64,000 bases of DNA from Botryococcus braunii (lineage: Eukaryota > Chlorophyta > Trebouxiophyceae), in assembly GCA_002005505.1 (NCBI GenBank), contig KV908642.1:1-64000 (forward strand). Direction: 5' to 3'. Of this stretch, positions 6,570 through 56,437 are shown piece by piece. The translations under genes were made by a program, and so were the position numbers. The notes beneath the pieces were generated by a model that had not been told where the DNA came from, did no database searches, and worked only from the letters and a program-made list of their open reading frames with translations. Each line of letters starts with the position of its first letter. Position 1 is the stretch's first letter.

Positions 6570-6600
6570 TTTCACTTTTCTTCAACAAGTCAAAAAAACC

Positions 6601-8083
6601 TCACTCATCATTATCACCATCAGCCTCAACAACATCCTCACCAATGATACTCCAACCAATGAGTGCGTTTTGTTTCACACCGCATACTTTTTTCATTTCA
6701 ACCCTCCATTGTTTCTTCAATAGCCTGGTGAATTTCGCCTGTTGAATACCAGAACCCGCAAATCTCTCAAGAAAGTGGGAAAATGCATATTTCACTGGGG
6801 TGCGAGCATTCTCAACCTGTTCCAAGTTTTCATTACCCCACTGTAAAGCAGGGTTAAGGTTTGCGGTATATTCTTGTGTTGTCGCCTTCACCTCATCGGA
6901 CAAGAGGAGGTGTCCGCGTGCTTTGTAGCTCTTGTAGCTCTCGATGATGAGGTTCGCAAATGCTTGTTTGTATCTGACATCATTCTTTACCTTGTCCTTC
7001 AAGGTAAGGTCTGCCAACTTGTGTAAAGGGTTGTTGGGGTCATAACCCTTATCTCCGACCTTCGCAAAGAAGAACGGAAAGTATATCTTGACAGCCCTTT
7101 TCATCAAGCCAACATCCACATCCGTCCAGAGGACTTCATAGTTTGTTGAAATGAGGGGAGTATAAAACAATCTAAACTCCATCACGGTGTTGCTGTAAAG
7201 CGCTCTCCCCTTCACCATCCCACCCCCCGTATCTCGCTTCATCGTCCTCGTGATGAACTTAGCATCCTCATCTGTCTCATCCGTTATACCGAGGCGTTTC
7301 CCCCTCATATACATCAGCATCGGTGTTCCATTTTCACTATGTTTTTGATATGTTGTATAGTAAGACGCATCGATAGAACCCGTGTAATCATCACCAAACA
7401 CTCCCTTCAACAAGTCCAGCACCAACCCTTTCCCATTTCTCCCCTCCCCGTGCATCACCAAAAATATTTCCTCCCTGTTCCCTCCAAACATACACACTGA
7501 CAACACCTCCAATAATGAATCATATGTTCCATCATCCTTGAACATCCCCCGTACAACCTTGCTCACCTCGTCGGTAGAAACCTCAGGATTAAAATCGTAT
7601 CCTGTTGTATAAGAAATATAGTCCTCCTTCTCTATTGATCTAAACACCATCTTATGTCCATCCCAAACTCCATTACGGAATGCCAAGAGGCCGGGGTCAG
7701 CATCAAGTTTCTCCTCAAACTTCGGGTCAAGCATATCAGGTTGTTCCTTGCAACAGCTAATAATGTGGTCCTTCCGTACCTTACTCAATAGAAAGTCGGG
7801 GGCTGCGCGTAGAACACTCTCATCTTGAACACTTACCTTGGCCTTGGTTGCCGGTGGTGCCTCATCATAAACTTTTAAAGCCCTCACATACTCACTTCGC
7901 ACATCACAGGAAATAAATCGACCCAGCCGGGATTGTAGAGTATCCTTGACCCACAAGCCAGTTTTCTCATCCCAACACCACCATCCACTATCACTCCGGA
8001 CAAACTTACCTTTTCCAATCCGAGCGACTATTTCAGCAAACGAAAAATCGGCAACAGGGCTCGTTAGAATGGTCATAGCAAGG
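6601..8083 (-). pseudogene. C-terminal half of TVpol-helicase: D5-like N domain and superfamily 3 helicase
   Basis: The virus-derived part runs from the insertion junction at 8083 to TGA at 6601-6603, about 494 codons. Early residues form a D5_N-like region ending in 'LLAFRNGVWDG'. The SF3 helicase follows: Walker A 'GEGRNGKG' at about 7426-7455, a Walker B-like 'GITDETDED' at about 7263-7290, and the motif C region 'FYTPLISTNY' near 7130-7160. The C-terminal tail is acidic. These are the signatures of D5/P4-type replicative helicases that unwind DNA at the origin. The first codons of the longer open frame (8084-8256) are LTR sequence, not helicase. The N-terminal polymerase half lies at 55549-56437, and the frame would be continuous without the insertion. 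As it stands the half-gene has lost its natural start. Confidence 0.88.
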
Positions 8084-8813
8084 TGTACAATTCTGGGCGT
8101 AATGTTCCCTGTATGTCCCGGCACGAAGGGTGTTAAGCTCGGTCGGGTCTCTTGCTGTGTGTAGGAGAGCAAGCAGAGCCCGACTGTGTGTTGACACTTG
8201 AGGCAACTGATCAGAGATAAGCACCCGGAGTGCTCTTTCAGTCCCAAACAAGTCATTACATTGCTTCTTGCTCTCTCTCAACGTCAAGGAATTCAAACTA
8301 CCTCTTCTAAGCATCGACAGATAGTTCGCATTTCCATTGTTCGATGAGTCAAGCATTCGCAACATTCTAATACACTTATCTAGACCTCTTCCTAATCAAT
8401 TGTCCATGCAAGTTACACTGAGATGCAGCACTTCACCTGTATGTCCCGGCACGAAGGGTGTTAAGCTCGGTCGGGTCTCTTGCTATGTGTAGGAGAGCAA
8501 GCAGAGCCCGACTGTGTGTTGACACTTGAGGCAACTGATCAGAGATAAGCACCCGGAGTGCTCTTTCAGTCCCAAACAAGTGCCGAGCCCTTCATGCCTG
8601 CTGCCTATATCCTTTCTTGCAAGAACGCGTCAAATTGCATTACTCTCTCTTTCTAAAATGGAATCAGTCCAGATCAATTATGGCAGAACTCTAGAGTTCT
8701 GCCATCCATTACTCTACCTCTAAGATTGTTCACATTGATTGCTTTAAGGGAAGCCTGGCCACTATTACTCTTCTGAGGGAAAGTCACTAATCTGTTCTTT
8801 CACTATTATAACA
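8084..8813 (-). repeat. Copia-A 3' LTR
   Basis: 730 bp, 5'-TG...CA-3' on the minus strand. It holds two copies of a 146-bp module (8108-8253 and 8436-8581) that differ at one position, separated by 182 bp. The first lies 24 bp from the 3' LTR end. The minus-strand polypurine tract AAGGGGAAG (8814-8822) adjoins it, as expected for plus-strand DNA priming. Confidence 0.93.
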
Positions 8814-8831
8814 CTTCCCCTTGACTTTTCC

Positions 8832-11800
8832 TCACAAAAACTTGGCCAGTCCTAGAGCCTCACGATGGCCCTGAAATACCTGCCTTGTCAACGGCTTGGT
8901 AAATATATCTGCCACATTCCTAGCAGATGGAACGTACTTCACATCCACCTGTCCCAATGCAATAGCTTCCCGAGCAAAATGGAAGCTGATTGCAATGTGC
9001 TTGGTATGCTTTGAGAACACTGGGTTTCTGAGATGATTGATGCATCCCTGATTATCACAGTGGATCTTCACAATCCAAGGAGAAATACCAATTTCTTCAA
9101 GGAATCCCTTCATCCAATTTGCCTCCTTGACAGCTGCACTTGCCGCCATGAACTCAGCCTCTACAGTGGATGTGGCCACTGCAGACTGCTTCTTGCTTCT
9201 CCAAACTACAGCTCCTCCAAACACACGAATTACGTAACCCGTAGTGGAAAACCTGTGATCCTGATCACCACCATAATCTGCATCCACAAAGCCCTCCAGC
9301 TCTGTGTCCTTCCCTCCAAGTACTAACACAAGATCCCTGGTAGCCATCAGATACTTCAACACTCTGATGGCTTCATTCCAGTGAGCAGTGGTGGGAGTAA
9401 TCCTGTACCTGGAAAGCACTCCCACAGCCTGGGAAATATCAGGCCTTGTGGTGTTTGCAATGTACAACAGTGACCCAACCAGCTCACAATATCTGTGCCC
9501 TGGTGGTAAGGGACTCCCAGCTCCAATGCTGGCACTGTTGTCCTTGGACATCGGTCGCTGTGTGGCCACAAAATCCTTAGTCATAGGGGTGTCAGGCCCC
9601 ACAGACTCCAGATCCAGCCCAAATTTCTCAACTAAGGCATCAATCTTTGGGATGCAACTCAAAGGAATCAACCCTTTCTCTCTATCTCTCATCACTTGGC
9701 AGCCTAAGAAATCTTTCACCTCTCCTAAATCATGAATGGTGAACTCCTTCTTCAACAATCCTTTCACTCTCTCAATCTCACTCATGCCCTTTGAAACTAT
9801 CAATAGATCATCAACATAAATCAGCACAAAGGATTTCCCTCCCTCCACAGAACATTTCACATAGACCCCAGCATCACTCTTGCACACCTCATACCCCATG
9901 GTATGTAGCTTCTCATTAAGGGTCTTATGCCATGCCCTTGGAGCTTGCTTCAGGCCATACAGAGCCTTCTTCAAGCGACACACAGTGTTCCCATCCCCAT
10001 TCTCAAACCCAGGAGGTTGTGTGACATAGACCTCCTCCTCTAATTCACCATTTAAAAACGCAGTCTTGACATCCACCTGGTGAATTTCAAGACCCTCCTG
10101 TGCAGCCACTGACAGTAAAGCTCTTCTAGACCCATAACTGCTGGTGGGAGCAAATACCTCCATCACATCCACTCCTGGAATTTGCCTACACCCTTGAGCC
10201 ACCAGCCTGGCCTTGAACCTAAGCACATTGCCGTGTGCATCCATTTTCATTGAGAAAATCCAGTGAACTGGGATGACTTTGTGCCCACGAGGTCTAGGAA
10301 CAAACTCCATCACCTCATGAGCATCTAAGGAGTTTTGCTCCTCCTGCATTGCAGCCTTCCAGTATTCCCACTGTGGGGACTGCTGGGCCTCCTTTAGACT
10401 TGAAGGCACACTAATCTTCCCAAAACGCACCCCAGTGTGCTTCCCCTGATCTTGCTTACTCTTACCCTCACTCTCATCCACTACTCTTTCGCTGAATGTC
10501 GCCGCACTGCACGTGGGGACTGTGGGTAAAGATCCAGATCTCTCCCTCTGCTCTTTCTCTCTCTTAGACTCACAGCTTGCCCTCTCAAGCTTGCTGCCAG
10601 CCACTCTCACATCATCCTCCCAAACACAGGTACCTCTCGGAAAGCTCTTGTAATTGGGGGAGTTCTCACACTGTCTTGGCTTCCGATTCACCTCCTCAGA
10701 CACACTCTCACATGGCTGACGGTTTGCAGTCCCGTCAGGACTCTCACAGACATGTGAACCACTCTGCATTGCATGAGCACTTGGTCTATCTTGCTGCTGT
10801 GCCCATGTCTCTCTCTCTCTCTGTCTGCTGCCCACTAGACATGAGCGCTGGGGCGCAGGCCCAGCAGCACACTCCCATGCATGGCCCACACTTGCGTGGC
10901 TGGCACCACATTGTCCTTGGGCATCACTGATAGAGTTCTCATCGCTAACATTTCTCTCAGGCACTGAGCAGGTCCCACCCATACATCTCAGCTCACTTGG
11001 ACCATCTGCAGTCTGATCAGAGACTGCCCCCCTCTCATCTCTTACAAGTGAAGCAGGTCTCTCGGTGTCCTGCCCCAATTCCTGCGCTTCCCCTGGTCCC
11101 TGTGACTCTGTGTCACCTTCAGTCCTCCCCTCTCGCTCACAGCTCTCTCCCTTATCCTGTGCCAGCAGGATATCTCGAGCCGCAGTTCGTTGCTCATAGC
11201 GTTGAGCCCGCGACAGTCCGTCCGGAGGCGGGATGGTAGTAGCCGGATGCGTGTTACGCAGTGACTGCTGTATTCGCTCTAAAGTCTGATGATGTTGTCC
11301 GCTGTCTGCACTTCCTCGCGCCAGTCGTTGAATAGCGTCCAGAGCCCCGGACTGATCCAGGTCCGGCTGCTGCTCTCCCGTGCTTGCTTCGGGAGACACA
11401 ATGAGAATGCCCTCCTCTTGGGAAGGCTTCCCCTGACTATCAGGCTCAGTTGCAGCCTGGTCAGAGGGTACCGGGAAGGAGCTGTCAGGTCTACTGCTGG
11501 AGCATGGGCTGCTGACAGTCTGGTTCTGCATACTGCGCTGTGACAATGGCACCACTGGATTGCTGCTGTGCAATTGCCCTGATAAGTCTTCAGGGTATGA
11601 AAACTGCTGAGGCTGGTCAGGGAGAACAGCCATTCCCACCCGAGTAGCTCCTCGAATGTGTTCCACAAATTGAACATCTCTGCTCTCTCTCCAGATCCCC
11701 CCCCCCATATAGATACGATATGCCTTTGACACTGGAGAGTAACCAGTGAACATCCCAGCCACAGCCTTCGGTGCAAAGGCCCCCCTCTGCTGGTCAGGAA

Positions 11801-13246
11801 CGTGCACAAATGCAAGGCATCCCCAAGTGCGCAGCAAGGATACATCTGGCTTATATCCCATGAACATTTCGCAGGGAGATAGGGGCCTGCCTGTGCTGGG
11901 TCCCATATTTAGGAGGGTGCAGGCTGTCTCCAGGGCTTCCTTCCACATAACAGGGCTTGCTGCAGCAAAATTGAGGAGGGTCCTGGTGCGCTCCTTGAGG
12001 GTTCTGTTGGCTCTCTCAGCAACTCCATTCTGCTGAGGGGTATATGGGGCAGATGTCTCCAGCTTAGTGCCCTGGGATGCACAAAATTCCTTGAACTTGG
12101 CATTTAAGAACTCTGTCCCTCTGTCACTGCGGATGCACTTCACTGTAGTTTCCTTCTCAGTTTGCCAATACAACATTAGGTCTCTGACAACAGCTCCAAT
12201 TACATCTTTTGACTTCACTGGCAGCACTGCCTTCCACCCAGATGCCTCATCAGTTACGGTTACCCAAAAGCGTTCCCCAGTAATGGCTGTTGGTGATATG
12301 GGACCCACAGTGTCAATGTGGATTCTGTCAAGGGGTTTCTCAGCAGGTCTAGAGCTTTCACCAAATGGGGGACGTGCATGCTTCCCCTCAATGCATGCTT
12401 CACAGTACTTAGGACACTTTTCACAGGGGGACATCAAGGTGTCTAGGCCAGTAACCAGTTGCTCACTGCTCAGGCGTTTCATCCAGGGGTCTCCTGGGTG
12501 TCCCAATCTACTGTGCCACAGGAAACGTTTGGCACAGTCATGACTTAGTCCTTTGGAGCATTTCTTCTTCAGGGCAGCAGTCACTGAATAATGAACCTTC
12601 ACTGGCGGTACTGGGAGGCAGTTGTGGATATAATAGAGACCATTCTCTGGTTTCACAGGCATCCGCCAACCACTCGGTCCTGAGACAGCAGTGAATGCTC
12701 CCAGTCTATCTGTACTGAACCGGATTCCATCGCGCAGAGCAGCAGATACTGAGAGAATATTGGTGGTGGCTGAGGGAACACACTGGACATGATGCAGCCA
12801 CACAGGAATATGCTGAGAGGACATGAGACACACTGACCCAGTAGCAACAATACCCCCAGTGGCATCAGATGTAGCAAGCAGCAGTGGAATAGGGTGGTCA
12901 TGTACTGTAGGGGCATGCAGCAGGGAAAGGTTGTTCACAAGATGTACAGACGCTCCACTATCCACAAGCCACGACTGTTTGGACTGTTGGTGCTTACTGC
13001 CATCCAGCACATTATAAGATACCACGTATGGCATACCTTCTGAGGGAGGAGAAGGTGGGCCTGGAGGAGGGTGCAGTAGTGGGAACGCTCCAGTGCCTGG
13101 GAATGCATGCTGCACGCTTGGAGGTGGCTGGGGTGCACCAGGAAACTGCCCTTGGGGCCACATGGCAGCAAGTTGCTGTACCGCTGCCACCACATTGCGT
13201 TGTGTCTCTGCATCCCTTTGACGTTTGCGGCAGTCTCTCCAAAAAT
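8832..13246 (-). pseudogene. Copia-A tandem copy 1: 5'-truncated Gag-Pol polyprotein
   Basis: The frame is open for about 1,470 codons from the deletion junction near 13247 to TGA at 8832. It begins inside the Gag zinc knuckle, keeping only the 'HFWRDC' half, and reads into LTR sequence upstream to 13277. Domains in order: aspartic protease 'WLVDSGASVHLVN', GAG-pre-integrase 'LWHSRLGHPG', integrase core with D ('IHIDTVGPIS'), D ('IRSDRGTEF') and E ('VAERANR'), a long variable linker, RVT_2 reverse transcriptase with 'IYVDDLL', and RNase H with 'VDADYGG' and 'HCDNQGC'. It differs from the second copy at only a few residues (for example 'WRSKKQ' against 'WGSKKQ'). Loss of the capsid part of Gag and of a 5' LTR makes it non-autonomous. 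Confidence 0.9.
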
Positions 13247-13457
13247 GCCTATATCCTTTCTTGCAAGAACGCGTCAAATTGCATTACTCTCTCTTTCTAA
13301 AATGGAATCAGTCCAGATCAATTATGGCAGAACTCTAGAGTTCTGCCATCCATTACTCTACCTCTAAGATTGTTCACATTGATTGCTTTAAGGGAAGCCT
13401 GGCCCCTATTACTCTTCTGAGGGAAAGTCACTAATCTGTTCTTTCACTATTATAACA
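13247..13457 (-). repeat. Copia-A LTR remnant between tandem copies
   Basis: This 211-bp fragment matches 8603-8813, the part of the LTR that serves as the 3' LTR start for the right-hand copy. The rest of the LTR and the gag 5' region of the left copy are missing, with a few bases of microhomology (TGCCT) at the junction. The TTCCCCTTGACTTTT tract follows, as at the intact LTR. Confidence 0.9.
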
Positions 13458-13475
13458 CTTCCCCTTGACTTTTCC

Positions 13476-16300
13476 TCACAAAAACTTGGCCAGTCCTAGA
13501 GCCTCACGATGGCCCTGAAATACCTGCCTTGTCAACGGCTTGGTAAATATATCTGCCACATTCCTAGCAGATGGAACGTACTTCACATCCACCTGTCCCA
13601 ATGCAATAGCTTCCCGAGCAAAATGGAAGCTGATTGCAATGTGCTTGGTATGCTTTGAGAACACTGGGTTTCTGAGATGATTGATGCATCCCTGATTATC
13701 ACAGTGGATCTTCACAATCCAAGGAGAAATACCAATTTCTTCAAGGAATCCCTTCATCCAATTTGCCTCCTTGACAGCTGCACTTGCCGCCATGAACTCA
13801 GCCTCTACAGTGGATATGGCCACTGCAGACTGCTTCTTGCTTCCCCAAACTACAGCTCCTCCAAACACACGAATTACGTAACCCGTAGTGGAAAACCTGT
13901 GATCCTGATCACCACCATAATCTGCATCCACAAAGCCCTCCAGCTCTGTGTCCTTCCCTCCAAGTACTAACACAAGATCCCTGGTAGCCATCAGATACTT
14001 CAACACTCTGATGGCTTCATTCCAGTGAGCAGTGGTGGGAGTAATCCTGTACCTGGAAAGCACTCCCACAGCCTGGGAAATATCAGGCCTTGTGGTGTTT
14101 GCAATGTACAACAGTGACCCAACCAGCTCACAATATCTGTGCCCTGGTGGTAAGGGACTCCCAGCTCCAATGCTGGCACTGTTGTCCTTGGACATCGGTC
14201 GCTGTGTGGCCACAAAATCCTTAGTCATAGGGGTGTCAGGCCCCACAGACTCCAGATCCAGCCCAAATTTCTCAACTAAGGCATCAATCTTTGGGATGCA
14301 ACTCAAAGGAATCAACCCTTTCTCTCTATCTCTCATCACTTGGCAGCCTAAGAAATCTTTCACCTCTCCTAAATCATGAATGGTGAACTCCTTCTTCAAC
14401 AATCCTTTCACTCTCTCAATCTCACTCATGCCCTTTGAAACTATCAATAGATCATCAACATAAATCAGCACAAAGGATTTCCCTCCCTCCACACAACATT
14501 TCACATAGACCCCAGCATCACTCTTGCACACCTCATACCCCATGGTATGTAGCTTCTCATTAAGGGTCTTATGCCATGCCCTTGGAGCTTGCTTCAGGCC
14601 ATACAGAGCCTTCTTCAAGCGACACACAGTGTTCCCATCCCCATTCTCAAACCCAGGAGGTTGTGTGACATAGACCTCCTCCTCTAATTCACCATTTAAA
14701 AACGCAGACTTGACATCCACCTGGTGAATTTCAAGACCCTCCTGTGCAGCCACTGACAGTAAAGCTCTTCTAGACCCATAACTGCTGGTGGGAGCAAATA
14801 CCTCCATCACATCCACTCCTGGAATTTGCCTACACCCTTGAGCCACCAGCCTGGCCTTGAACCTAAGCACATTGCCGTGTGCATCCATTTTCACTGAGAA
14901 AATCCAGTGAACTGGGATGACTTTGTGCCCACGAGGTCTAGGAACAAACTCCATCACCTCATGAGCATCTAAGGAGTTTTGCTCCTCCTGCATTGCAGCC
15001 TTCCAGTATTCCCACTGTGGGGACTGCTGGGCCTCCTTTAGACTTGAAGGCACACTAATCTTCCCAAAACGCACCCCAGTGTGCTTCCCCTGATCTTGCT
15101 TACTCTTACCCTCACTCTCATCCACTACTCTTTCGCTGAATGTCGCCGCACTGCACGTGGGGACTGTGGGTAAAGATCCAGATCTCTCCCTCTGCTCTTT
15201 CTCTCTCTTAGACTCACAGCTTGCCCTCTCAAGCTTGCTGCCAGCCACTCTCACATCATCCTCCCAAACACAGGTACCTCTCGGAAAGCTCTTGTAATTG
15301 GGGGAGTTCTCACACTGTCTTGGCTTCCGATTCACCTCCTCAGACACACTCTCACATGGCTGACGGTTTGCAGTCCCGTCAGGACTCTCACAGACATGTG
15401 AACCACTCTGCATTGCATGAGCACTTGGTCTATCTTGCTGCTGTGCCCATGTCTCTCTCTCTCTCTGTCTGCTGCCCACTAGACATGAGCGCTGGGGCGC
15501 AGGCCCAGCAGCACACTCCCATGCATGGCCCACACTTGCGTGGCTGGCACCACATTGTCCTTGGGCATCACTGATAGAGTTCTCATCGCTAACATTTCTC
15601 TCAGGCACTGAGCAGGTCCCACCCATACATCTCAGCTCACTTGGACCATCTGCAGTCTGATCAGAGACTGCCCCCCTCTCATCTCTTACAAGTGAAGCAG
15701 GTCTCTCGGTGTCCTGCCCCAATTCCTGCGCTTCCCCTGGTCCCTGTGACTCTGTGTCACCTTCAGTCCTCCCCTCTCGCTCACAGCTCTCTCCCTTATC
15801 CTGTGCCAGCAGGATATCTCGAGCCGCAGTTCGTTGCTCATAGCGTTGAGCCCGCGACAGTCCGTCCGGAGGCGGGATGGTAGTAGCCGGATGCGTGTTA
15901 CGCAGTGACTGCTGTATTCGCTCTAAAGTCTGATGATGTTGTCCGCTGTCTGCACTTCCTCGCGCCAGTCGTTGAATAGCGTCCAGAGCCCCGGACTGAT
16001 CCAGGTCCGGCTGCTGCTCTCCCGTGCTTGCTTCGGGAGACACAATGAGAATGCCCTCCTCTTGGGAAGGCTTCCCCTGACTATCAGGCTCAGTTGCAGC
16101 CTGGTCAGAGGGTACCGGGAAGGAGCTGTCAGGTCTACTGCTGGAGCATGGGCTGCTGACAGTCTGGTTCTGCATACTGCGCTGTGACAATGGCACCACT
16201 GGATTGCTGCTGTGCAATTGCCCTGATAAGTCTTCAGGGTATGAAAACTGCTGAGGCTGGTCAGGGAGAACAGCCATTCCCACCCGAGTAGCTCCTCGAA
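13476..16300 (-). pseudogene. Copia-A tandem copy 2: C-terminal Pol part
   Basis: About 940 codons from the gypsy insertion point to TGA at 13476. It contains the variable integrase-to-RT linker, RVT_2 ('HWIFSVKMDAHGN', 'IYVDDLL') and RNase H ('GFVDADYGG', 'KIHCDNQGC'). The frame is open throughout. It is the continuation of 51806-53726 on the other side of the gypsy complex. The target duplication TCGAA sits at 16296-16300 and 51801-51805. Confidence 0.92.
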
Positions 16301-16599
16301 TGTAACAGGAATAGTCGCGTGTTATAGGAAAATGACCGGACCACGAGGATTTGGACCTCCATAAAGGTCCCTTCGTGAGTTATGTTCCTCCACGCCAAGA
16401 AGTGGCTACTTCACGCGCCAAGGGAGTGACCCCTTACTTGACAAGGCGCATTGGCGATGGAGACAGAGACACACTTAGAACAGGATAGAATAAGGCTTTG
16501 GCAGAGGAAGGACCGGGCCGGACTGGACGGGTACTGAGGTGGAGCCCAAACAACTTGTAACCATTGTTTTCGCATCCTTTGGCCGTTTCTACTGTATCA
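16301..16599 (+). repeat. Gypsy LTR, plus orientation, left edge
   Basis: 299 bp, TGTAACAGG...CTGTATCA. It differs from the right-edge LTR (51502-51800) at one position seen by eye (AGAGAC against AGGGAC). Confidence 0.93.
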
Positions 16600-16601
16600 C
16601 T

Positions 16602-16886
16602 CGGCCAAAGGATGCGAAAACAATGGTTACAAGTTGTTTGGGCTCCACCTCAGTACCCGTCCAGTCCGGCCCGGTCCTTCCTCTGCCAAAGCCTTATTCT
16701 ATCCTGTTCTAAGTGTGTCCCTGTCTCCATCGCCAATGCGCCTTGTCAAGTAAGGGGTCACTCCCTTGGCGCGTGAAGTAGCCACTTCTTGGCGTGGAGG
16801 AACATAACTCACGAAGGGACCTTTATGGAGGTCCAAATCCTCGTGGTCCGGTCATTTTCCTATAACACGCGACTATTCCTGTTACA
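16602..16886 (-). repeat. Gypsy LTR, minus orientation, truncated
   Basis: About 285 bp, lacking the terminal 14-15 bases at its left end. It lies almost back to back with the plus LTR at 16301, so the two form a palindrome with arms of about 285 bp and a 16-base loop. It is the 3' LTR of G1. Confidence 0.92.
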
Positions 16887-25401: not shown

Positions 25402-25406
25402 CTTTC

Positions 25407-31704: not shown

Positions 31705-31724
31705 AGCATGCAGGCAAGGGGAAG

Positions 31725-32418: not shown

Positions 32419-32423
32419 CTTTC

Positions 32424-37806: not shown

Positions 37807-37808
37807 CT

Positions 37809-42645: not shown

Positions 42646-42650
42646 GTTAC

Positions 42651-43529: not shown

Positions 43530-43554
43530 CTTCCCCTTGACAGCACCCTGTCAC

Positions 43555-46500
43555 CTATGTCATCTTCACAAGTCCAAACCCTCGCCTGTGCATCTGGAAG
43601 GCAGGGCGAGCGAGAGGCTTTGTCAGCATGTCTGCCTTGTTCCTTGCAGACTCCACATAGCAGAGTGTAACCTGCCCCTTTGCAATAGCTTCACGTGCAA
43701 AGTGGAAGCACACTGCAATGTGCTTAGTATACTTGCTATACAGTGGGTTTTTCAGGTTAGCAATGCACCCCTGATTGTCACAGTATAGCTTCACTGACCA
43801 AGGAGGAGTTCCGATTTCCTCCATGAACCCACGCAGCCAGTTAAGCTCCTTAATAGCCAGACTGGTTGCCATGAATTCTGCTTCCACAGTGGAGGTAGCA
43901 ACTGAGTGTTGCTTCTTACTACCCCAGACCACAGCACTGCCAAACACTGATAGCACATATCCCGAGGTAGAATGCCTGCTGTCAATATCGCCAGCATAAT
44001 CTGCATCAACATGACCTTCTAACACAGGCCCTTTCCCTCCCAGCACTAAGACACACTCTCGAGTAGACTGAAGATACCTCAATACCCTCAAGCCCTCATT
44101 CATGTGGGCAGTGGTGGGAGCGTTCCGGTAACGGGACAGAACACCCACAGCCTGAGCTATATCAGGTCGAGTTGTATTAGCAATATACAACAGAGACCCA
44201 ACAAGCTCACAATATCTATGCCCGGGAGGCAGTGGAGTCCCAGACCCAAAGCTGGTCTCACCCACTGTAACCTGCGGCATCCCAGACATCACAAAGTCTT
44301 TACTCATGGGAGTATCGACTGTACGTGACTCAGCACTCACCCCAAACTTCTCACACAGTGCATCAATCTTAGGCACGCAGCTCAGTGATAAGCACCGATT
44401 CTCTCTATCTCTCAGGATCTGGCAGCCCAAGAAGTCCTTGACTTCACCAAGGTCATGAATCTTGAAGCTTGCCAACAGCTCCTTTTTCACCCATTCTATC
44501 TCTTCCGCACCCATTGCCACAATCAAAAGATCATCAACATACACAAGCATGTATGACAGCTCCCCATCCTCGTGTCTCTTTATGTAAACTCCCGCATCGC
44601 TCTTACACACTTCATATCCCATACTCAGCAGCTTCTCATTCAGGGTCTTGTGCCAAGCCCTGGGAGCCTGCTTCAGGCCATAAAGGGCCTTACGCAGTCT
44701 GCACACAATGTTGGGGTTGCCATTATCAAACCCAGGAGGCTGTGTCACATACACCTCCTCCTCTAATTCACCATTCAAAAAGGCGGTCTTTATATCCACC
44801 TGGTGAATTTCCATGTTCTTTGCTGCAGCAGTTGCTAGCAAAGTCCTCCTGGACCCATAGCTACTGGTGGGTGCAAAGACCTCATCTACATCAACTCCAG
44901 GAATCTGTCTACAGCCCTGGGCTACAAGCCGAGCCTTAAATCTCAACACGTTCCCATGTGCATCAGTCTTCACAGAGAAGATCCAATGCACAGGGATCAC
45001 CTTGTGTCCCCTGGGTCTCTCAACGTACTCCATCACCTCGTGCGCATCAAGAGAATCTTGCTCCTCTTGCATTGCCTGGCGCCAGAATTCCCACTGAGGG
45101 GATCTTTGCGCCTCCCTGAGGTTTCCAGGGATTGGCACCTTGGACCACCTCACCCCAGGTATCTTACCCTTTGCAGGATTCAGATTGTGATCATGCACAA
45201 CATGGCTATCCTCTCTAGGCTCACACGCACGTGCTTCCACTACTCTTTCGCTCGAGGTTACTGCGTTACACACCTCTCTGACTCTCTCCCACTCTGGAGG
45301 TGTCTGCAGCTTTCTCTCCTTGGAGGATTCACATGCTGCTCCACTCAATCTGGGTCTTACATCACTCATCATGTCCCAAATGCACTCATCACTTAAAGGC
45401 GCAGCATAATCTGGCACTGTGCGACACCCTGCAGTGGTGTCTCTCTCATCCACGCTTGTACTCTCACAACACACCTGTGACTCCCCAGTGTGTCCCTCAC
45501 AAGCACGCAGAGCCTGGCCATCTGAAGACTCCCTTTGTCCATCAAGTGTCTGATTGGAAATCTCCAAACTGACCTCTCTTGCCTCACTCTCAGCGCTTAC
45601 ATGATCAGACATGCCCTCCAGCCTGGCCAAGTCCTGTCCATTAGGCTGAGCTTCCGTTGCTTCCCCTGGGCAAATGGCCTCTGACATTCTCCTATTCTCT
45701 CCATCACTCACATCTCCATCATGTTCCACAGTGACCTCAGCTGCAGTCTCACGTGCTGCTACTCTCTGATCATACCGTTGCTGCCGGGTCAGCCCGTCTT
45801 GCCCTCGGACACCCATGGCCCCAACTTCCATTCGAACACATTCTTGCACATTATTCAAACGTTGCATGTGTGACTTGGTCTCCTCGCCTCCTCGCGCCAG
45901 GTTCTCCATGTGTCCGAGTACGGACCAGCTGTGGCCGGACTGCGTATGGCTCAGCTCCGAGGAAGTGGGCTCCCCGTCCACGTTGACACTTGAAGTCTCA
46001 GAATTCTCACAGGGGTTGATTGCACATGGGGTAGTTGCACAGGGGGTGGTTGCACAGGGGGAGTCAGGTCCGGACTGCTGCACGTTGACCTCTCGGTTGC
46101 AGAGAGGCTCAGGATCATCTGAGTCCCAAAAAGACAACTGACCCAAGGACTGCTGGCCCTCCTGTTGTACAAAAGGCAAGGCAAAGGGCTGCTGGACTGC
46201 ATTTGGACTCACAGGAGACATGGTGCTAAGCCCCACTCTGTCTGCGCCCCTTAAGTGCTCCAGAAAAGTAACATCTCTGCTTTCTTTCCAAATCCCGTTT
46301 CCCATATAAATTCTATATGCCTTTGACACACTGGAATACCCTGTGAAGAGACCAGGGGAGGTCTTAGACTCAAACACTCCCCTTTGGTGATCAGGTATGT
46401 GCACATGTGCTAGACAGCCAAAAGTCCTGAGCAGGGATACATCGGGCTTTACCCCATGGAAGGCTTCATAAGGCGTCTTGTCACGTCCAGTCACAGGTCC

Positions 46501-48699: not shown

Positions 48700-49007
48700 G
48701 ATCAAGCCAGTTCTTCACTCCAAGCCTTAAATGACTTCCCCTGGAAGCACTTCTTCCTAGCTCTGACACTGAGTTGATCAGTCCCAGAAGTACTTCTGCT
48801 TTCCCAGCCCAGTTGCTACTGTACAACAATTCCTTCCAGCACTACAGAAGGAATAATTTTACGTGACTAGCTCGATATGTTTGAACGGCCAGACCTCACT
48901 CGTCAGTGAAGCTCGCAGTCTCGAAGCGGGGTCCGAAACCCCTTTTCTCCCTGGAAATCTGTCGTGCGTCACTGCAAGCTCAGCTTGGAAAGCGTGGGCC
49001 CATAACC
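48700..49007 (-). other. Copia-C 5' leader with primer-binding site
   Basis: 308 bp between LTR and gag. The minus-strand GGTTATGGGCCCAC at 48994-49007 is the half-tRNA primer-binding site, directly next to the LTR end. No upstream gene is apparent in the rest. Confidence 0.75.
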
Positions 49008-49886
49008 TCAAGCATTTCTGCTTGCGGCGTCACCTGCAGTGATGGCACGACGGCAGCGTCAGTTCGTAGCCTGTGGGAAAAACCGTCCACGCTACAACGT
49101 TTCCAGGAACAGCACACAGCACTCTCCAACAGTAGAGGTTGGTCAAGGATACCAACATGCTTCGGACAAGTCTTACAAATGATGTTAACTGCTCTCACTC
49201 TTGCTAAAGACCACGTAACACTACGCCTTGCCTGATAGCAGAGTTCAGCACCAAAGAGGCCTTGCGATGTCTACTTTACGTCACTAGAATACAATAATAG
49301 TTCATCAGTAACTCAGCAAGGTCTCTTTGTGATGTTTGTACAGTGAAACTATCTTACCGCCACAACGGTGGACGTCAACATAAGTCTCAATGAGGTCAAA
49401 CATTCAGTGCGCTCTCGTCATGCACTCTCATCAATGCACACAGCAGTAATATCTAACTGGTCTGAATGTTTGAGCACAATCGTATCTGGAACGACTTTGA
49501 GAATCCTAAACACACCTGCAGTGATGGCACGACGGCAGCGTCAGTTCGTAGCCTGTGGGAAAAACCGTCCACGCTACAACGTTTCCAGGAACAGCACACA
49601 GCACTCTCCAACAGTAGAGGTTGGTCAAGGATACCAACATGCTTCGGACAAGTACCGAGCCGTTCCTGGGCTGCCCAGGGATGGCTCGGACTGCAGGGAT
49701 CCTAAAGTACTACCATACGTAATGTCTATTGAGAACGCATATCGTACAAGTCACGTGTTATGTCATTGAGGTACGAGTATGATCTATACCGTTCATAAAG
49801 GGCTATAAAGGCTATAGTTTACACTGCTGTTGATGGCATGTGACAGGGGATGTCACTAAGTACAGTATTGACCAATTCATTCAACA
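49008..49886 (-). repeat. Copia-C 5' LTR
   Basis: Same 879-bp sequence as the 3' LTR by eye, with module copies at about 49031-49171 and 49513-49653. Confidence 0.93.
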
Positions 49887-49891
49887 GTTAC

Positions 49892-50913
49892 GGACCCGGG
49901 TTTTCACCTTGCATGGGTTTCCCACTCACATTGTATCAGACAGAGATCCTAGGTGGGTGGGTCGCTTCTGTCAAGAGCTCTTTCGGTTGACCGGTTGTCG
50001 CTCTGCGCTATCTACAGCGTTTCATCCGCAGACCGACGGTCAAACGGAACGAATTAATAGGATTTTGGAGGATTATTTGCGTCATTACGTCACTGGAAGA
50101 CACAACGACTGGGATAAACATTTGTGTGAGGCTGAATTTTCTTACAACAACACTTTTCAGCAATCAATCAACACTACTCCATTTAGGTTGACTTTCGGTC
50201 AGGATCCCACGATTCCCTTCCAGGAAGTCTATGAAGGTGTGACATCTTCTGTACGTGAGTATGTACCGGCAGCAGCAGAGTTTGTACGAAGGATGAGATG
50301 GGATCTAGAAAGAGCGCGGACATGTCTCAAAGCTGCGCAGGACCGCATGAAGGCATATGCAGACGCGAGGAGAAAAGATGCTCCTATTTTAAAAATAGGC
50401 CAACCTGTCCTCCTCTCAACAAAGAATCTGAAATTCAAGCATACTCGGACAAGAAAACTCTTACCTCGGTTTATTGGGCCTTTTCCCATCGTCCAGGAGG
50501 TATCATCGGTAGCTTTCAGAATTAGGCTTCCAAAAACTCTGAGGGTTCATGATGTCTTCCATGTTTCTATGCTTAAGCCTTATAAGGAAGGTGGGACGGT
50601 ACAACCTCCTCCTCTACCTGAGATTATTGATGGAGAAGAGGAGTATGAGGTCGAGGCTGTGCTAGCTCATAGGGAACGAAAGTTACGAGGACGAAAAACT
50701 GCGCGAGAATATCTTGTAAAGTGGACCGGGTATCAGGATATTCATAATACTTGGGAGCCAGAGGATAACTTAGAACACGCCAGGGAGGCGTTACAGCGGT
50801 ACTGGGATTTAACCACGGAGCACAGGCCGGAACAAAAAGAAAAGGTGGACAAGAAACGTAAAGGACGTGGTAAAAATGCTGAGAAGCAGCGGAAGCGCGC
50901 TAGGCGCGCTTAG
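49892..50913 (+). pseudogene. Gypsy G3 Pol, 3' part: integrase core end and chromodomain
   Basis: Continues the G3 frame after the Copia-C target duplication: integrase 'VSDRDPRW' and 'TDGQTERINR' with the catalytic D and E, the integrase C-terminal region and the chromodomain, ending in TAG at 50911-50913. The frame upstream to 49840 is Copia-C LTR and not part of the gene. A single substitution gives 'KWTGYQD' where G1/G2 have Asn. Confidence 0.93.
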
Positions 50914-51501
50914 TGCTCTGGCAGGTCGGGTCGGCCCCTCGGTGCGTCCTTGGGCCACCTTGGAAGCTCTAAGCTTGGCCCTTAGAGTGTACCCTGGGGG
51001 TATCCCAGTACTAGAGCGCACTCGGATGAATAGGACGTAAGCGGGGTAGAATGTCTACCTCAGGTGCGTGCGGTGATGACCGCTCACCCTGGACAGGACT
51101 CGTCGAGGTAGGGTGTCGTCTACCTCGGGTGCATGCGGTGCTGACTGCTCACCCTTGTCAGGTTTCGGACGTCAATCATGTAATGTCGCGACATCCGTGC
51201 TAGCTCGCGCTGTAGCGTAACGCCCGACGCAGATGGGTGGCCCCACTGCCGTTGGGTAGAATTCCTATTGGACAGGACGGGCGAATTTATGTATGGACGG
51301 GACAGATTTTACATTGTTATACGGACAGGGCTGGACAAGACAGGACAGGACAGGGGTCTGGCTTGGGCTGGGGACGCCAGACTAGTACCCGCGGACAGGA
51401 CGTGACAGGACCGTACCTCTGCCAAGTGTGTTAGGTGCGTAGTGTAGTTGTTTAGAGTGAGTCTCCCTCTTGGCCGTGACGTCCAAGCTAAGGGGGGAGG
51501 G
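50914..51501 (+). other. G3 3' untranslated region and polypurine tract
   Basis: Same non-coding region as in G2, with GTCTACCTC repeats and GGACAGG words. The A/G-rich tract at 51490-51501 primes plus-strand synthesis next to the LTR. Confidence 0.8.
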
Positions 51502-51800
51502 TGTAACAGGAATAGTCGCGTGTTATAGGAAAATGACCGGACCACGAGGATTTGGACCTCCATAAAGGTCCCTTCGTGAGTTATGTTCCTCCACGCCAAG
51601 AAGTGGCTACTTCACGCGCCAAGGGAGTGACCCCTTACTTGACAAGGCGCATTGGCGATGGAGACAGGGACACACTTAGAACAGGATAGAATAAGGCTTT
51701 GGCAGAGGAAGGACCGGGCCGGACTGGACGGGTACTGAGGTGGAGCCCAAACAACTTGTAACCATTGTTTTCGCATCCTTTGGCCGTTTCTACTGTATCA
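51502..51800 (+). repeat. Gypsy LTR, plus orientation, right edge
   Basis: Complete 299 bp ending CTGTATCA, followed by the TCGAA target duplication at 51801-51805 and Copia-A sequence. Confidence 0.93.
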
Positions 51801-51805
51801 TCGAA

Positions 51806-53726
51806 TGTGTTCCACAAATTGAACATCTCTGCTCTCTCTCCAGATCCCCCCCCCCATATAGATACGATATGCCTTTGACACTGGAGAGTAACCAGTGAAC
51901 ATCCCAGCCACAGCCTTCGGTGCAAAGGCCCCCCTCTGCTGGTCAGGAACGTGCACAAATGCAAGGCATCCCCAAGTGCGCAGCAAGGATACATCTGGCT
52001 TATATCCCATGAACATTTCGCAGGGAGATAGGGGCCTGCCTGTGCTGGGTCCCATATTTAGGAGGGTGCAGGCTGTCTCCAGGGCTTCCTTCCACATAAC
52101 AGGGCTTGCTGCAGCAAAATTGAGGAGGGTCCTGGTGCGCTCCTTGAGGGTTCTGTTGGCTCTCTCAGCAACTCCATTCTGCTGAGGGGTATATGGGGCA
52201 GATGTCTCCAGCTTAGTGCCATGGGATGCACAAAATTCCTTGAACTTGGCATTTAAGAACTCTGTCCCTCTGTCACTGCGGATGCACTTCACTGTAGTTT
52301 CCTTCTCAGTTTGCCAATACAACATTAGGTCTCTGACAACAGCTCCAATTACATCTTTTGACTTCACTGGCAGCACTGCCTTCCACCCAGATGCCTCATC
52401 AGTTACGGTTACCCAAAAGCGTTCCCCAGTAATGGCTGCTGGTGATATGGGACCCACAGTGTCAATGTGGATTCTGTCAAGGGGTTTCTCAGCAGGTCTA
52501 GAGCTTTCACCAAATGGGGGACGTGCATGCTTCCCCTCAATGCATGCTTCACAGTACTTAGGACACTTTTCACAGGGGGACATCAAGGTGTCTAGGCCAG
52601 TAACCAGTTGCTCACTGCTCAGGCGTTTCATCCAGGGGTCTCCTGGGTGTCCCAATCTGCTGTGCCACAGGAAACGTTTGGCACAGTCATGACTTAGACC
52701 TTTGGAGCATTTCTTCTTCAGGGCAGCAGTCACTGAATAATGAACCTTCACTGGCGGTACTGGGAGGCAGTTGTGGATATAATAGAGACCATTCTCTGGT
52801 TTCACAGGCATCCGCCAACCACTCGGTCCTGAGACAGCAGTGAATGCTCCCAGTCTATCTGTACTGAACCGGATTCCATCGCGCAGAGCAGCAGATACTG
52901 AGAGAATATTGGTGGTGGCTGAGGGAACACAGTGGACATGATGCAGCCACACAGGAATATGCTGAGAGGACATGAGACACACTGACCCAGTAGCAACAAT
53001 ACCCCCAGTGGCATCAGATGTAGCAAGCAGCAGTGGAATAGGGTGGTCATGTACTGTAGGGGCATGCAGCAGGGAAAGGTTGTTCACAAGATGTACAGAC
53101 GCTCCACTATCCACAAGCCACGACTGTTTGGACTGTTGGTGCTTACTGCCATCCAGCACATTATAAGATACCACGTATGGCATACCTTCTGAGGGAGGAG
53201 AAGGTGGGCCTGGAGGAGGGTGCAGTAGTGGGAACGCTCCAGTGCCTGGGAATGCATGCTGCACGCTTGGAGGTGGCTGGGGTGCACCAGGAAACTGCCC
53301 TTGGGGCCACATGGCAGCAAGTTGCTGTACAGCTGCCACCACATTGCGTTGTGTCTCTGCATCCCTTTGACGTTTGCGGCAGTCTCTCCAAAAATGGCCT
53401 TTCCTGTGGCAGTAGTTGCACGTGCCTCTCACTTCTCCCCTTGATTCTGAGTCTGCTGGCTGTTTGGAGGGATTGGCCCCGCTAGTGGAAGGGGCTGGAT
53501 CAGTCTCTCGTTGAGCAGGCATTGCCTTCATCACCATGGCAGGCTGTTCTCCATCATCGTTGTAGCCAGAAGCCTCTGCAGTGGTGGAAATGAGAGCTGC
53601 CAGATCATCCAGGGGGTAAGCTACTGCAGTGGGCAACAGCCCTGGAGGATTAGCTGCTGCTGGCAGTCCCTGCACAATCTGGGAGGCCACATGACCATCC
53701 AAGAGGTCATGTCCATTGCGTTTCAA
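51806..53726 (-). pseudogene. Copia-A tandem copy 2: zinc knuckle, protease and integrase part
   Basis: Open from about 53726 to the gypsy insertion. It carries the end of Gag, the complete CCHC knuckle 'CNYCHRKGHFWRDC', protease 'WLVDSGASVHLVN', GAG-pre-integrase 'LWHSRLGHPG' and the integrase core with D, D and E. It continues in frame at 16300-13476 once the gypsy complex and one TCGAA are set aside. At its N-terminal end a one-base loss separates it from the upstream gag frame. Confidence 0.92.
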
Positions 53727-54229
53727 GCAGCTTTGAGATTTATCATTCTAGACACATACTGAGAGATCGTTTCTCCACGTCTCATCCCTTTGGACATTTC
53801 CTTCAGCCAGTCTGCATTTGCTTGAGTGTTGTAGCCACCAACAAATTTCTTGCAAATAAACAGATATGCATCATAAGCTGACGGCTTACTTGACACTTCT
53901 CCTAACCATTCCTCTGGAACTGACTCATACAGCAGAAGCATTGCAGCCGCATTGTGGATAGTTCCAGGCATGGCTGACTGAATGGCAGGAAAGAACCCTT
54001 GCACTATTGGCAGCAGTGAAGCATTGTCCCATACCACAAAATTTGTGCCATGACGATCCAGTTTAATATGCACTTTGACTTGAGTGGCTATGACCTTGGG
54101 GAGTACATCTCCCTCGCCCTTTGATGTGCTGGGTGTACACGGCTGTCGTGTGGGAGACGATGTAGATGCTTCCTCTGTTGTGGGCTCCTCCTCAGATGGC
54201 TCCCTTGATTTAGATCTCTTTCTCGCCAT
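53723..54229 (-). pseudogene. Copia-A Gag N-terminal part, ending in a frameshift
   Basis: 168 residues from ATG 54229: a charged, Ser/Thr-rich start followed by a Ty1/copia-type Gag domain ('FVVWDNASLLPIVQ', 'ADWLKEMSKGMRRGE'). The frame ends in TGA at about 53723, where one base appears lost from a T-run; the next frame begins in overlap at 53726. In Copia-B and Copia-C the same region is continuous, so this is a lesion or consensus error, not a programmed shift. Confidence 0.88.
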
Positions 54230-54240
54230 GCTGATGTTAC

Positions 54241-54737
54241 TCAGTCTGCGTTAGGTTCTGACCGCTGCGAGTCCCCGTCCTCGTCTCCGTTGTCTGTGTC
54301 CGTGCACCACTCCTCTGGGCTGAATCCTTTTCTGCTGCCCAGAAAGGAAAGTAGGAAGTCCTCGTCAAGAGTGGCGAGAGCACACTCCACTGCTGTGTAG
54401 GCTGCCCTTTCTTCCCAATACTCGGGTTTGCTGGGTCCTCCGAGCTGTTGTAGGTGTCGTTCAAATAATGCTCGCGTGACGAAGCCTGGGTCCGCGTTGA
54501 TGAATGAACACTCCCACGCAGTTACTTTGTAGGCTGGGTAAACAGAGAATCGTCGTCTGAACCACAGAGGCTGTTCGACTTTGCCCAGTCCGTACGCCGG
54601 CTGACAAAATCCTTCACTAGAAATGCTCGTTCTTCTGGTGTTCTCGGTCCCGTATCTCCTCCAGCTCTCCTCAGGCTATCATATGTAGGTGGTGAAGGAG
54701 TTGGGGGAATAAAAGGTCTTTTACTGCCGGTCGACAT
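54241..54737 (-). pseudogene. ORF0: extra reading frame upstream of Copia-A gag, frameshifted
   Basis: From ATG 54737 a frame reads about 60 codons ('MSTGSKRPF...', Pro-rich, then 'RAFLVKDFVSRRTDW') before losing coding character and stopping at 54522. An overlapping frame takes over near 54570-54600 and stays open to TGA at 54241-54243 ('VYPAYKVTAWECSF', 'EYWEERAAYTAVECA', acidic end). Together they span about 165 codons and end 11 bases before the gag ATG. One indel would join them. No family is recognised, and Copia-B and Copia-C leaders have nothing like it. It may be an accessory or captured gene. Confidence 0.5.
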
Positions 54738-54806
54738 CCTCCGCTCTGCTTCGTTCGTCCCATCGTAGGCTCGGAACATACTTTCAGTTGCCCAGCTCAA
54801 GAGTTG

Positions 54807-54820
54807 GTGGGCCCATAACC
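54807..54820 (-). other. Copia-A primer-binding site (half-tRNA type)
   Basis: Minus-strand GGTTATGGGCCCAC abuts the 5' LTR and continues CA, matching the plant-type anticodon arm of initiator tRNA-Met over about 15 bases. Confidence 0.75.
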
Positions 54821-55548
54821 TGTACAATTCTGGGCGTAATGTTCCCTGTATGTCCCGGCACGAAGGGTGTTAAGCTCGGTCGGGTCTCTTGCTGTGTGTA
54901 GGAGAGCAAGCAGAGCCCGACTGTGTGTTGACACTTGAGGCAACTGATCAGAGATAAGCACCCGGAGTGCTCTTTCAGTCCCAAACAAGTCATTACATTG
55001 CTTCTTGCTCTCTCTCAACGCAAGGAATTCAAACTACCTCTTCTAAGCATCGACAGATAGTTCGCATTCCATTGTTCGATGAGTCAAGCATTCGCAACAT
55101 TCTAATACACTTATCTAGACCTCTTCCTAATCAATTGTCCATGCAAGTTACACTGAGATGCAGCACTTCACCTGTATGTCCCGGCACGAAGGGTGTTAAG
55201 CTCGGTCGGGTCTCTTGCTGTGTGTAGGAGAGCAAGCAGAGCCCGACTGTGTGTTGACACTTGAGGCAACTGATCAGAGATAAGCACCCGGAGTGCTCTT
55301 TCAGTCCCAAACAAGTGCCGAGCCCTTCATGCCTGCTGCCTATATCCTTTCTTGCAAGAACGCGTCAAATTGCATTACTCTCTCTTTCTAAAATGGAATC
55401 AGTCCAGATCAATTATGGCAGAACTCTAGAGTTCTGCCATCCATTACTCTACCTCTAAGATTGTTCACATTGATTGCTTTAAGGGAAGCCTGGCCACTAT
55501 TACTCTTCTGAGGGAAAGTCACTAATCTGTTCTTTCACTATTATAACA
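54821..55548 (-). repeat. Copia-A 5' LTR
   Basis: 728 bp, ends TG...CA, followed by CAAGG. Same two-module structure as the 3' LTR (modules about 54845-54990 and 55171-55316). Confidence 0.93.
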
Positions 55549-56437
55549 CAAGGTCATCTATATCCCCCGCGTCCGGCACTCCATTTAACTCTTCCTCCGT
55601 AAACCCCCCGTTCATTGGCTTGATGAGCAGAGGAATGTCATAGCTCGTCTTGTTGCGAACATACTGTTGAGCCTCTGCCAAGATTTCGTCAGTAAGTTCC
55701 TGCTCTCCACGCTCCACCATGCATCCATCGAACACCAGCACACCCACCTTGAACCCCTTGTTCTCCAAAAACTCTACAAGATGTTTTAGACAGTCGTTTT
55801 CGTGCGTACAAAGAACAAGGTTGGTCAGGCTCCCCTCTTCGTTGTTTTTAGACTTGTCGGCATATTGTCTCAGATGCTCGTTCAACTCGCACACCCTTCC
55901 ACGGATTTGACACAACTCCTTCACCAGTTCCTTGAACCATTTCGGTGATGCCCGTGCGACCTTCCCCGTCGCATTTACAAACTTCAAAACATACTTTTTC
56001 GCCTCCTCTCTGTCCATATCCATGGTGTGCATAAGGTCGTTGAGTTTGTCCTCTCTGTTCTCTACATAGTCCTTTAAAAGTTTGTGCGGGATGTTGTTCA
56101 TCTCACAGTATGTCATGAGGATGGTTGGATGAGCGTTCTTCATATCAACATCCCAGTAATACTCTCCCGCTATGGTGTGCCGGATACGCTTTTCAAAAAA
56201 CTGCAACCCCACTCCGCCCCTGGCAAACACCCTCCCGACTCCGTAAGGACTGTTCTCTGATGGTTCATACTCTACTTGAAGCCGCCCGTTGCGGGACTTT
56301 TTCAAGTATCTCTCACAGCTCTTTTTCATCTTGCTCACCTCCTTGGAGTTGAGGTGAGGGAACAGGTGGTTGGACAGCTCAATGATGCGTCGCAGAAGCT
56401 CGGTGTTGAAGGTCTCGGTTCTCTTGTTGTATGCCAT
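55549..56437 (-). pseudogene. N-terminal half of TVpol-helicase: TVpol-type (family A-like) DNA polymerase
   Basis: About 296 codons from ATG 56437 to the insertion point. The open frame also extends upstream to a GTG at 56476. The region 'GVGLQFFEKRIRHTIAG' leads into motif A 'YYWDVDMKNAHPTIL' (D and the HP pair characteristic of transpoviron/polinton-like virus polymerases). A Lys-rich motif B-like 'EAKKYVLKFVNATGK' and motif C-like 'LVFDGCMVE' follow. In known relatives this domain is fused to an SF3 helicase, and the helicase half lies at 6601-8083. The last viral codon before the LTR is in frame with the helicase half across one copy of CAAGG. As interrupted, the protein ends three codons into LTR sequence. 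Confidence 0.85.

What the first reader, a model, noticed from the sequence alone, without database searches (positions are those of the whole stretch)
6601..56437. Virus-like polymerase-helicase gene split in frame by a 47.5-kb retrotransposon nest
The SF3 helicase half (6601-8083) and the TVpol half (55549-56437) are separated exactly by Copia-A, with CAAGG on both sides. Setting the insertion and one CAAGG aside, the phase of the two halves matches, so the gene was intact when Copia-A landed. This gives a relative date for loss of the virus-like element's replication gene and shows a large viral gene that persisted in a host chromosome. Annotation pipelines would report two unrelated fragments.
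Basis: partly seen in the sequence, partly recalled or inferred. Interest (0 to 1): 0.9.

Follow-up and report, generated by a model that had tools for sequence, protein, structure and literature searches.

The report
Viral replication gene split by retrotransposon
A virus-derived DNA-replication gene lying in a eukaryote's chromosome was cut in two, recently and without shifting its reading frame, by a jumping gene that has since collected further jumping genes inside it; the case is clean, but such insertions into integrated viruses are already known.

Summary
On the minus strand a TVpol-like half (55550-56437) and an SF3-helicase half (6601-8078) flank one LTR retrotransposon, Copia-A (8084-55548, 47,465 bp), with near-identical LTRs (1 mismatch, 2 gaps in 731 columns) and CAAGG on both sides. 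The phase of the halves agrees. Paralogues in the same 176-Mb genome settle the adjacency: C32 encodes both parts in one 781-aa frame, and C295 reads through the exact position with one codon where the window's codon is split. The halves hold no stop and dN is low where dS is saturated or not estimable; the LTRs point to a recent break. Qualifications: the neighbouring integrase-like gene also appears frame-broken, and an open frame after so recent a break is not evidence of upkeep since. The C32 copy lies in a 20.8-kb element with terminal inverted repeats, like a polinton-like virus. In the window the gene pair sits between inverted repeats that one genome search found only at this locus (about 5.5 kb without Copia-A). 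Four of seven TVpol loci found carry an insertion inside the gene flanked by a 5-bp repeat. Retrotransposons inside polinton-like viruses and virophages are published. Verdict: a real, well-supported new example of a known kind.

The parts
6601..8078 (-). C-terminal half of the gene: D5_N-type linker and SF3 helicase; stop codon at 6601-6603
   Evidence: Pfam D5_N E 1e-12; PHROG DNA primase E 2.3e-43; poxvirus D5 and C962R helicases in PDB; no internal stop
55550..56437 (-). N-terminal half: TVpol-like DNA polymerase part, 296 aa, starts at ATG 56437
   Evidence: 62% and 70% identical to the N-terminal parts of the paralogues C32 and C174a, 41% to C174b; family-A-like motifs DVDMKNAHP and VFDGCMV by eye (recalled; no supporting hit in Pfam, PDB or NCBIfam)
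8079..8083 (.). target-site duplication CAAGG, left copy
55549..55553 (.). target-site duplication CAAGG, right copy
8084..55548 (-). Copia-A LTR retrotransposon with an internal tandem duplication and a secondary nest; 47,465 bp
   Evidence: Copia-order domains gag_pre-integrs, rve, RVT_2; at least 40 LTR copies in the genome, these two included
8084..8813 (-). Copia-A LTR, 3' LTR of the minus-strand element (730 nt)
54821..55548 (-). Copia-A LTR, 5' LTR of the minus-strand element (728 nt)
13246..16303 (-). second copy of 8602-11659: tandem duplication inside Copia-A, offset 4,644 bp
   Evidence: 3058 columns, 6 mismatches; 11652-13247 matches 51801-53396 at 99.6%
16301..51800 (.). 35.5-kb secondary nest inside Copia-A (Gypsy-type elements, two of the three polyproteins with chromodomain, and two further Copia polyproteins); TCGAA at 16296-16300 and 51801-51805
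   Evidence: borders by eye
57261..58319 (-). putative tyrosine-recombinase-like integrase, main frame (assignment recalled from published PLVs)
   Evidence: 31% over 320 columns to the protein at the same relative position in C32; homologues upstream of TVpol at 6 of 7 TVpol loci, this one included
56894..57436 (-). probable C-terminal part of the integrase-like protein in another frame (apparent frame break in the proline-rich tract)
   Evidence: 24% over 196 columns to the C32 protein, E 1e-6, resemblance concentrated by eye near its C-terminus
6215..6582 (+). left pair of a locus-specific ~150-bp repeat (6215-6390, 6435-6582)
58757..59181 (-). right pair of the same repeat, inverted (58757-58915, 59006-59181)
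   Evidence: 96% to the left copy; all 11 matches in the genome search lie on C355 at this locus (the tool warns that it skips very common words)
5388..6194 (+). D12-class N6-adenine DNA methyltransferase, perhaps of the same viral element
   Evidence: Pfam MethyltransfD12 E 2.3e-37; the only other homologue found lies on C356 (two pieces, one stop), 13 kb from an integrase-like homologue

Best explanation
An endogenous element related to polinton-like viruses (PLVs) carried an integrase-like gene and a TVpol-SF3-helicase replication gene. A Copia LTR retrotransposon of a high-copy family inserted into the linker between the polymerase and helicase parts by ordinary integrase strand transfer with a 5-bp stagger (shown: LTRs, CAAGG on both sides, phase, paralogues; the strand-transfer chemistry follows from what is known of LTR retrotransposons). 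The element then gained a partial tandem duplication and was itself hit by Gypsy and Copia elements, growing to 47.5 kb (nesting shows that the inner elements came later; when the duplication arose is not known beyond preceding or following the landing). The insertion ends synthesis of the fused protein (inferred). The break is recent, judged by the LTR pair (inferred; no clock). Nothing seen indicates a function for the split arrangement.
For: LTR pair with 1 mismatch in 731 columns; CAAGG and TG...CA ends. Element size: 47,465 minus the nest with its duplication (35,505) minus the tandem duplication (4,644) = 7,316 bp; of the neighbouring same-strand LTR pairs listed, seven span 7.28-7.32 kb (such as C174:33580-40902, 7,323 bp) and six span 14.2-14.8 kb (hand arithmetic; pairing by neighbourhood only). 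C32 781-aa frame and C295 read-through of the junction. C174a runs from TVpol into helicase in one 613-aa open frame. dN 0.23-0.29 with dS above 3 or not estimable in the five pairs that involve C355. No stop in the 787 codons of the two halves. C32 copy inside a 20.8-kb element with terminal inverted repeats (991 columns, 96.8%).
Against: No reads were seen, and the nest holds long near-identical inverted copies (16602-21975 against 37792-32419, 99.85%) on which an assembler can err. The polymerase assignment rests on paralogy and recalled motifs, with no library or structure support. No exogenous relative was found in viral contigs (0 relatives in 4 scans). No homologue of the C32 capsid candidates was found in the window, so the parent of this copy may not have been a full virus.
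Confidence: 0.93

Rival explanations
1. Assembly join: two unrelated virus-derived fragments were brought together through the repeats of Copia-A.
For: The insert is made of repeats, the family has at least 40 LTR copies, and no reads were available.
Against: A chance join would have to give CAAGG on both sides, complementary halves adjacent to the codon, the same phase, and matching divergence from the paralogues (C32: 62% and 63%; C174a: 70% and 69%).
Confidence: 0.04
2. Two separate genes: TVpol and helicase were never fused here, and Copia-A fell between them.
For: The junction lies in a linker, not inside a recognised domain (the D5_N match starts at residue 85 of the open frame, 17 residues after the first whole helicase codon).
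Against: In C32, C295 and C174a the two parts run in one frame across this point.
Confidence: 0.02
3. Not exclusive of the best explanation: the unit between the inverted repeats was no virus remnant but a compact capsid-less mobile element (integrase-like plus TVpol-helicase, about 5.5 kb) that lived like a transpoviron or Crypton in the nucleus; Copia-A broke it.
For: The repeat was found only at this locus, two copies at each end, inverted; no homologue of the C32 capsid, ATPase or tail candidates in the window; integrase-like protein 31% identical to that of C32, while those of C174a, C174b, C295 and C769 are 48-58% identical to it.
Against: Single copy; methyltransferase directly outside the left repeat; no duplication or attachment site looked for or shown; the integrase-like gene appears frame-broken; partial deletion of a PLV would look alike.
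Confidence: 0.15

Closest known systems
Retrotransposon insertions in PLVs of cryptophytes and of Tyrannomonas regina (PMC12220804, PMC12747079; passages seen)
   Same: Elements with reverse transcriptase and flanking direct repeats nested in PLVs, some inside genes (rve-INT in PLV-27); PLVs with TVpol-S3H and tyrosine recombinase; a Guillardia theta PLV with a Copia element is cited there
   Different: The inserts named in the passages are about 4 to 9.8 kb; here the insert grew to 47.5 kb by secondary nesting, and the split gene is the TVpol-S3H fusion. Host identity here unknown
Ngaro retrotransposons in endogenous mavirus-like elements of Cafeteria burkhardae (PMC8547959; passages seen)
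   Different: Ngaro encodes a tyrosine recombinase instead of rve integrase; the hosts are virophages; a survey with preference statistics
Gypsy element inside a PLV of Cymbomonas tetramitiformis (PMC10675990; passages seen)
   Same: Chromodomain Ty3/Gypsy element in a PLV; TVpol-S3H and Yrec among the PLV genes there
   Different: Lies between capsid genes, not inside the polymerase gene
TVpol-S3H of PgVV, PLV-YSL1, PLV-RED1 and virophages (PMC4642659; passages seen)
   Same: Polymerase I-like part fused to an SF3 helicase
   Different: No direct sequence comparison with those proteins was made here

Membership tests
TVpol-S3H fusion | C-terminal SF3 helicase | tested here: met
   D5_N, PHROG primase, PDB D5 and C962R matches; Walker A GEGRNGKG by eye
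TVpol-S3H fusion | N-terminal DNA polymerase I-like part | tested here: inconclusive
   Motifs recalled and seen by eye; no supporting Pfam, NCBIfam or PDB match; model pLDDT 40.7, not used
TVpol-S3H fusion | both parts in one reading frame in relatives | tested here: met
   C32 781 aa; C295 across the junction; C174a 613-aa frame. C603 has a frame change between the parts
Copia LTR retrotransposon | GAG-pre-integrase and integrase before RVT_2 in one polyprotein | tested here: met
   8832-13283: gag_pre-integrs 254-302, rve 315-416, RVT_2 990-1234
Copia LTR retrotransposon | paired LTRs TG...CA and 5-bp target duplication | tested here: met
Copia LTR retrotransposon | primer-binding site and polypurine tract | tested here: inconclusive
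   GGTTATGGGCCC directly beside the inner border of the 5' LTR and a purine tract beside the other LTR, by eye; the likeness to the tRNA-iMet half-primer of copia is recalled
Polinton-like virus (this locus) | major and minor capsid protein and ATPase genes | tested here: not met
   No homologue of the C32 candidates in the 64-kb window (E up to 1e-3); so the locus is called PLV-related, not a PLV
Polinton-like virus (C32 element) | 14-40 kb with terminal inverted repeats of several hundred bp | tested here: met
   20.8 kb, inverted repeats aligned over 991 columns
Polinton-like virus (C32 element) | major capsid protein with double jelly roll | tested here: inconclusive
   431-aa candidate by eye; no Pfam, PHROG or PDB support
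Transpoviron-like element (window unit) | about 7-kb linear element with terminal inverted repeats and helicase gene, associated with giant viruses (recalled) | tested here: inconclusive
   Inverted repeats and a span of about 5.5 kb seen; association not testable

The most novel reading that the evidence does not exclude
The integrase-like plus TVpol-helicase pair, bounded by inverted repeats found only at this locus, is a compact capsid-less mobile element related to PLVs, and the Copia-A insertion stopped it. The C32 element, whose own integrase-TVpol-helicase block is also bracketed by a 124-bp inverted repeat (81%), would then be a composite of such a unit and a capsid module.
Probability: 0.12. 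Interest if true: 0.6.

Novelty: new member of a known kind. Interest (0 to 1): 0.38.

Why it matters
It is an unusually clean record of a retrotransposon ending a virus-derived replication gene in a eukaryotic genome. With three more TVpol genes interrupted at other places in the same genome, it makes testable whether retrotransposons are a main way in which integrated PLVs are silenced. It also warns that long nests can hide viral genes from annotation.

Tried and rejected
Target preference for the replication gene: 4 of the 7 TVpol loci found (which scored 10 of 10 candidates; counts are lower bounds) have an in-gene insertion flanked by a 5-bp repeat: C355 CAAGG, C174a GTGAT, C174b GACAG, C295 GGTAC (read by eye). 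I saw no insertion in the integrase-like genes beside them in the stretches fetched. With lengths of about 2.35 and 1.3 kb, chance alone would put all four in the longer gene roughly one time in six (hand arithmetic), so no preference is claimed. Weak points: the LTR of C174a does not begin with TG as I read it; the outer LTR pair of C295 was not resolved; C603 has a Copia-B-like LTR shortly before the first TVpol match (residue 76) and a frame change; C769 is fragmentary. Among the seven, only C32 is open and uninterrupted through both parts.

Exogenous relatives: 0 in 4 scans of viral contigs. Structure: both single-sequence models were too poor to use (pLDDT 40.7 and 38.1); no fold search was made. 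Reading the ~150-bp repeats as a dispersed host repeat: rejected, because all 11 matches lie at this locus (with the tool's warning that it skips very common words). Inverted repeats around the module were not found in the flanking windows tested in C174a and C174b; the C603 upstream window in that script was one base long by mistake, so C603 was not tested, and C295 and C769 were not tried in that part. Absolute dating: not tried, no clock. Host: not identified; the rRNA search did not complete. A genome-wide count of capsid genes did not complete either.
Full report
What is there. The window is the first 64 kb of contig C355 (167,557 bp) of a 176-Mb, 989-contig genome, a eukaryote by its LTR retrotransposons; the species is not known to me. 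On the minus strand an open frame of 558 aa (6601-8277) and one of 320 aa (55541-56503) run up to the borders of a retrotransposon. The helicase half matches Pfam D5_N (E 1e-12), PHROG DNA primase (E 2.3e-43) and the D5 and C962R helicases in the PDB (that C962R is of African swine fever virus is recalled). The other half has no supporting library match, but is 62% and 70% identical to the N-terminal parts of the paralogues C32 and C174a and bears family-A-polymerase-like motifs that I recognise from memory.

The insertion. Copia-A runs from 8084 to 55548. Its LTRs (730 and 728 nt) differ by one mismatch and two gaps in 731 columns. CAAGG stands directly outside both. The polyprotein has the Copia order of domains. 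The LTR family has at least 40 copies, these two included; 918 candidates were seen and 40 scored. Inside, a 4,644-bp tandem duplication and a 35.5-kb nest with its own TCGAA duplication (16296-16300, 51801-51805) account for the size: 47,465 - 35,505 - 4,644 = 7,316 bp. Of the neighbouring same-strand LTR pairs, seven span 7.28-7.32 kb, which fits, and six span 14.2-14.8 kb, which I did not study. By nesting the order is viral element, Copia-A, inner Gypsy and Copia elements.

One gene, in phase. By coordinates the codon begun at 55549 is completed by 8078 and 8077, and the helicase frame begins at 8076. The halves were not joined. The independent test is the paralogues. C32 has one 781-aa frame that matches the first half at 62% over 287 columns and the second at 63% over 479. 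C295, which has other lesions, reads through the very position: the residue aligned to the last whole TVpol codon and the residue aligned to the first whole helicase codon are separated by one codon (2022 and 2026 of L006). C174a also runs from TVpol into helicase in one open frame of 613 aa. In C603 the frame changes between the parts, so it does not help.

Age and constraint. Nine pairs were compared by NG86 (the YN00 method failed in eight of them). dN is 0.23 to 0.35 in eight, with dS above 3 or not estimable; in the ninth (C603 and C174a helicase) dN is 0.055 and dS 0.33. The halves hold no stop. Because one LTR substitution implies little time for decay, the open frames show that the break is young rather than that the gene was kept afterwards. 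Gene conversion between LTRs could make it look younger.

Surroundings. Upstream of TVpol lies an integrase-like gene (57261-58319) whose homologues precede TVpol at 6 of 7 TVpol loci, this one included; that it is a tyrosine recombinase is recalled from published PLVs and has no library support here. Its C-terminal part seems to lie in another frame (56894-57436, E 1e-6), so Copia-A is probably not the only lesion, unless this is an assembly error in a G-rich tract. The pair lies between inverted copies of a ~150-bp repeat, two at each end, which the genome search found only here (11 matches, all at this locus). Without Copia-A the span 6215-59181 would be about 5.5 kb. A D12 methyltransferase (5388-6194) lies just outside; the only other homologue found is on C356, 13 kb from another integrase-like gene. 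No homologue of the capsid, ATPase or tail candidates of the C32 element was found in the window; one zinc-finger-type C32 protein matched weakly at 4892-5089 (26% over 66 columns, E 6e-6).

Parent type. The C32 copy lies in a 20.8-kb element with terminal inverted repeats (991 columns, 96.8%), a tail protein with a Peptidase_S74 chaperone (E 1.1e-10), and capsid and ATPase candidates that I name by eye only (searches give no support). This is the anatomy of a polinton-like virus as described in PMC12220804 (passages read).

Other interrupted copies. Of seven TVpol loci found, four have an insertion inside the gene flanked by a 5-bp repeat at different sites: C355, C174a (direct repeats of 449 bp, identical), C174b (Copia-B) and C295 (a 14-kb nest whose outer LTRs I did not resolve). 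I read these repeats by eye. I claim no target preference.

Literature. [quoted passage not shown] PMC12220804 (passages): retrotransposon-like elements of about 4 to 9.5 kb nested in PLVs, some in genes; TVpol-S3H is widespread and YREC frequent; a Copia element in a Guillardia theta PLV is cited. PMC12747079 (passages): a 9.8-kb retrotransposon breaks rve-INT of PLV-27. PMC10675990 (passages): a Gypsy element in a PLV. PMC4642659 (passages): the TVpol-S3H fusion. So the kind of event is known. My four paper searches (3, 6, 1 and 3 papers) and the passages read show no report of a TVpol-S3H gene split by an insert of this size; that is a small search of an incomplete library, and supplements were not open to me.

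Verdict. The finding is correct in its facts and mostly in its reading. It is a fine example of a known kind, with modest added interest from the recurrence in one genome and from the compact inverted-repeat unit.

Noticed in passing
5388-6194: D12-class adenine methyltransferase next to the left repeat; the only other homologue found is on C356 (two pieces, one stop), 13 kb from an integrase-like homologue.
   Followed up: partly
6215-6582 and 58757-59181: A ~150-bp repeat with inverted ends of about 37 nt of its own, twice at each end of the unit in inverted orientation, found only at this locus.
   Followed up: partly
16602-23340 and 32419-42650: Long inverted near-identical Gypsy copies (99.85-99.94%) inside the nest; a place where the assembly should be checked.
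   Followed up: no
8602-16303, 51801-53396: A 4,644-bp tandem duplication that starts inside the LTR of Copia-A, as if by template switching or unequal exchange (the cause is a guess).
   Followed up: no
L022, L023 (C32:575420-596230): A 20.8-kb virus-like element with terminal inverted repeats; a 124-bp part of the repeat recurs inverted just after its helicase gene.
   Followed up: partly
L005, L028 (C174:217308-227300): A divergent TVpol (41-44%) followed in frame by a different region, then, after a Copia-B insertion, a frame with a GTGKS Walker motif: another polymerase-helicase type.
   Followed up: partly
whole genome: Copia-A LTR pairs fall into two spacings, about 7.3 kb (seven pairs) and 14.2-14.8 kb (six pairs), by hand pairing of the listed places.
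   Followed up: no
60271-63957 and C355:64001-82000: Several more Copia elements nested or in tandem next to the viral unit.
   Followed up: no
1-3775: Microsatellite-rich DNA (GA, CT, GT tracts) with a self-inverted block at 792-1295.
   Followed up: no
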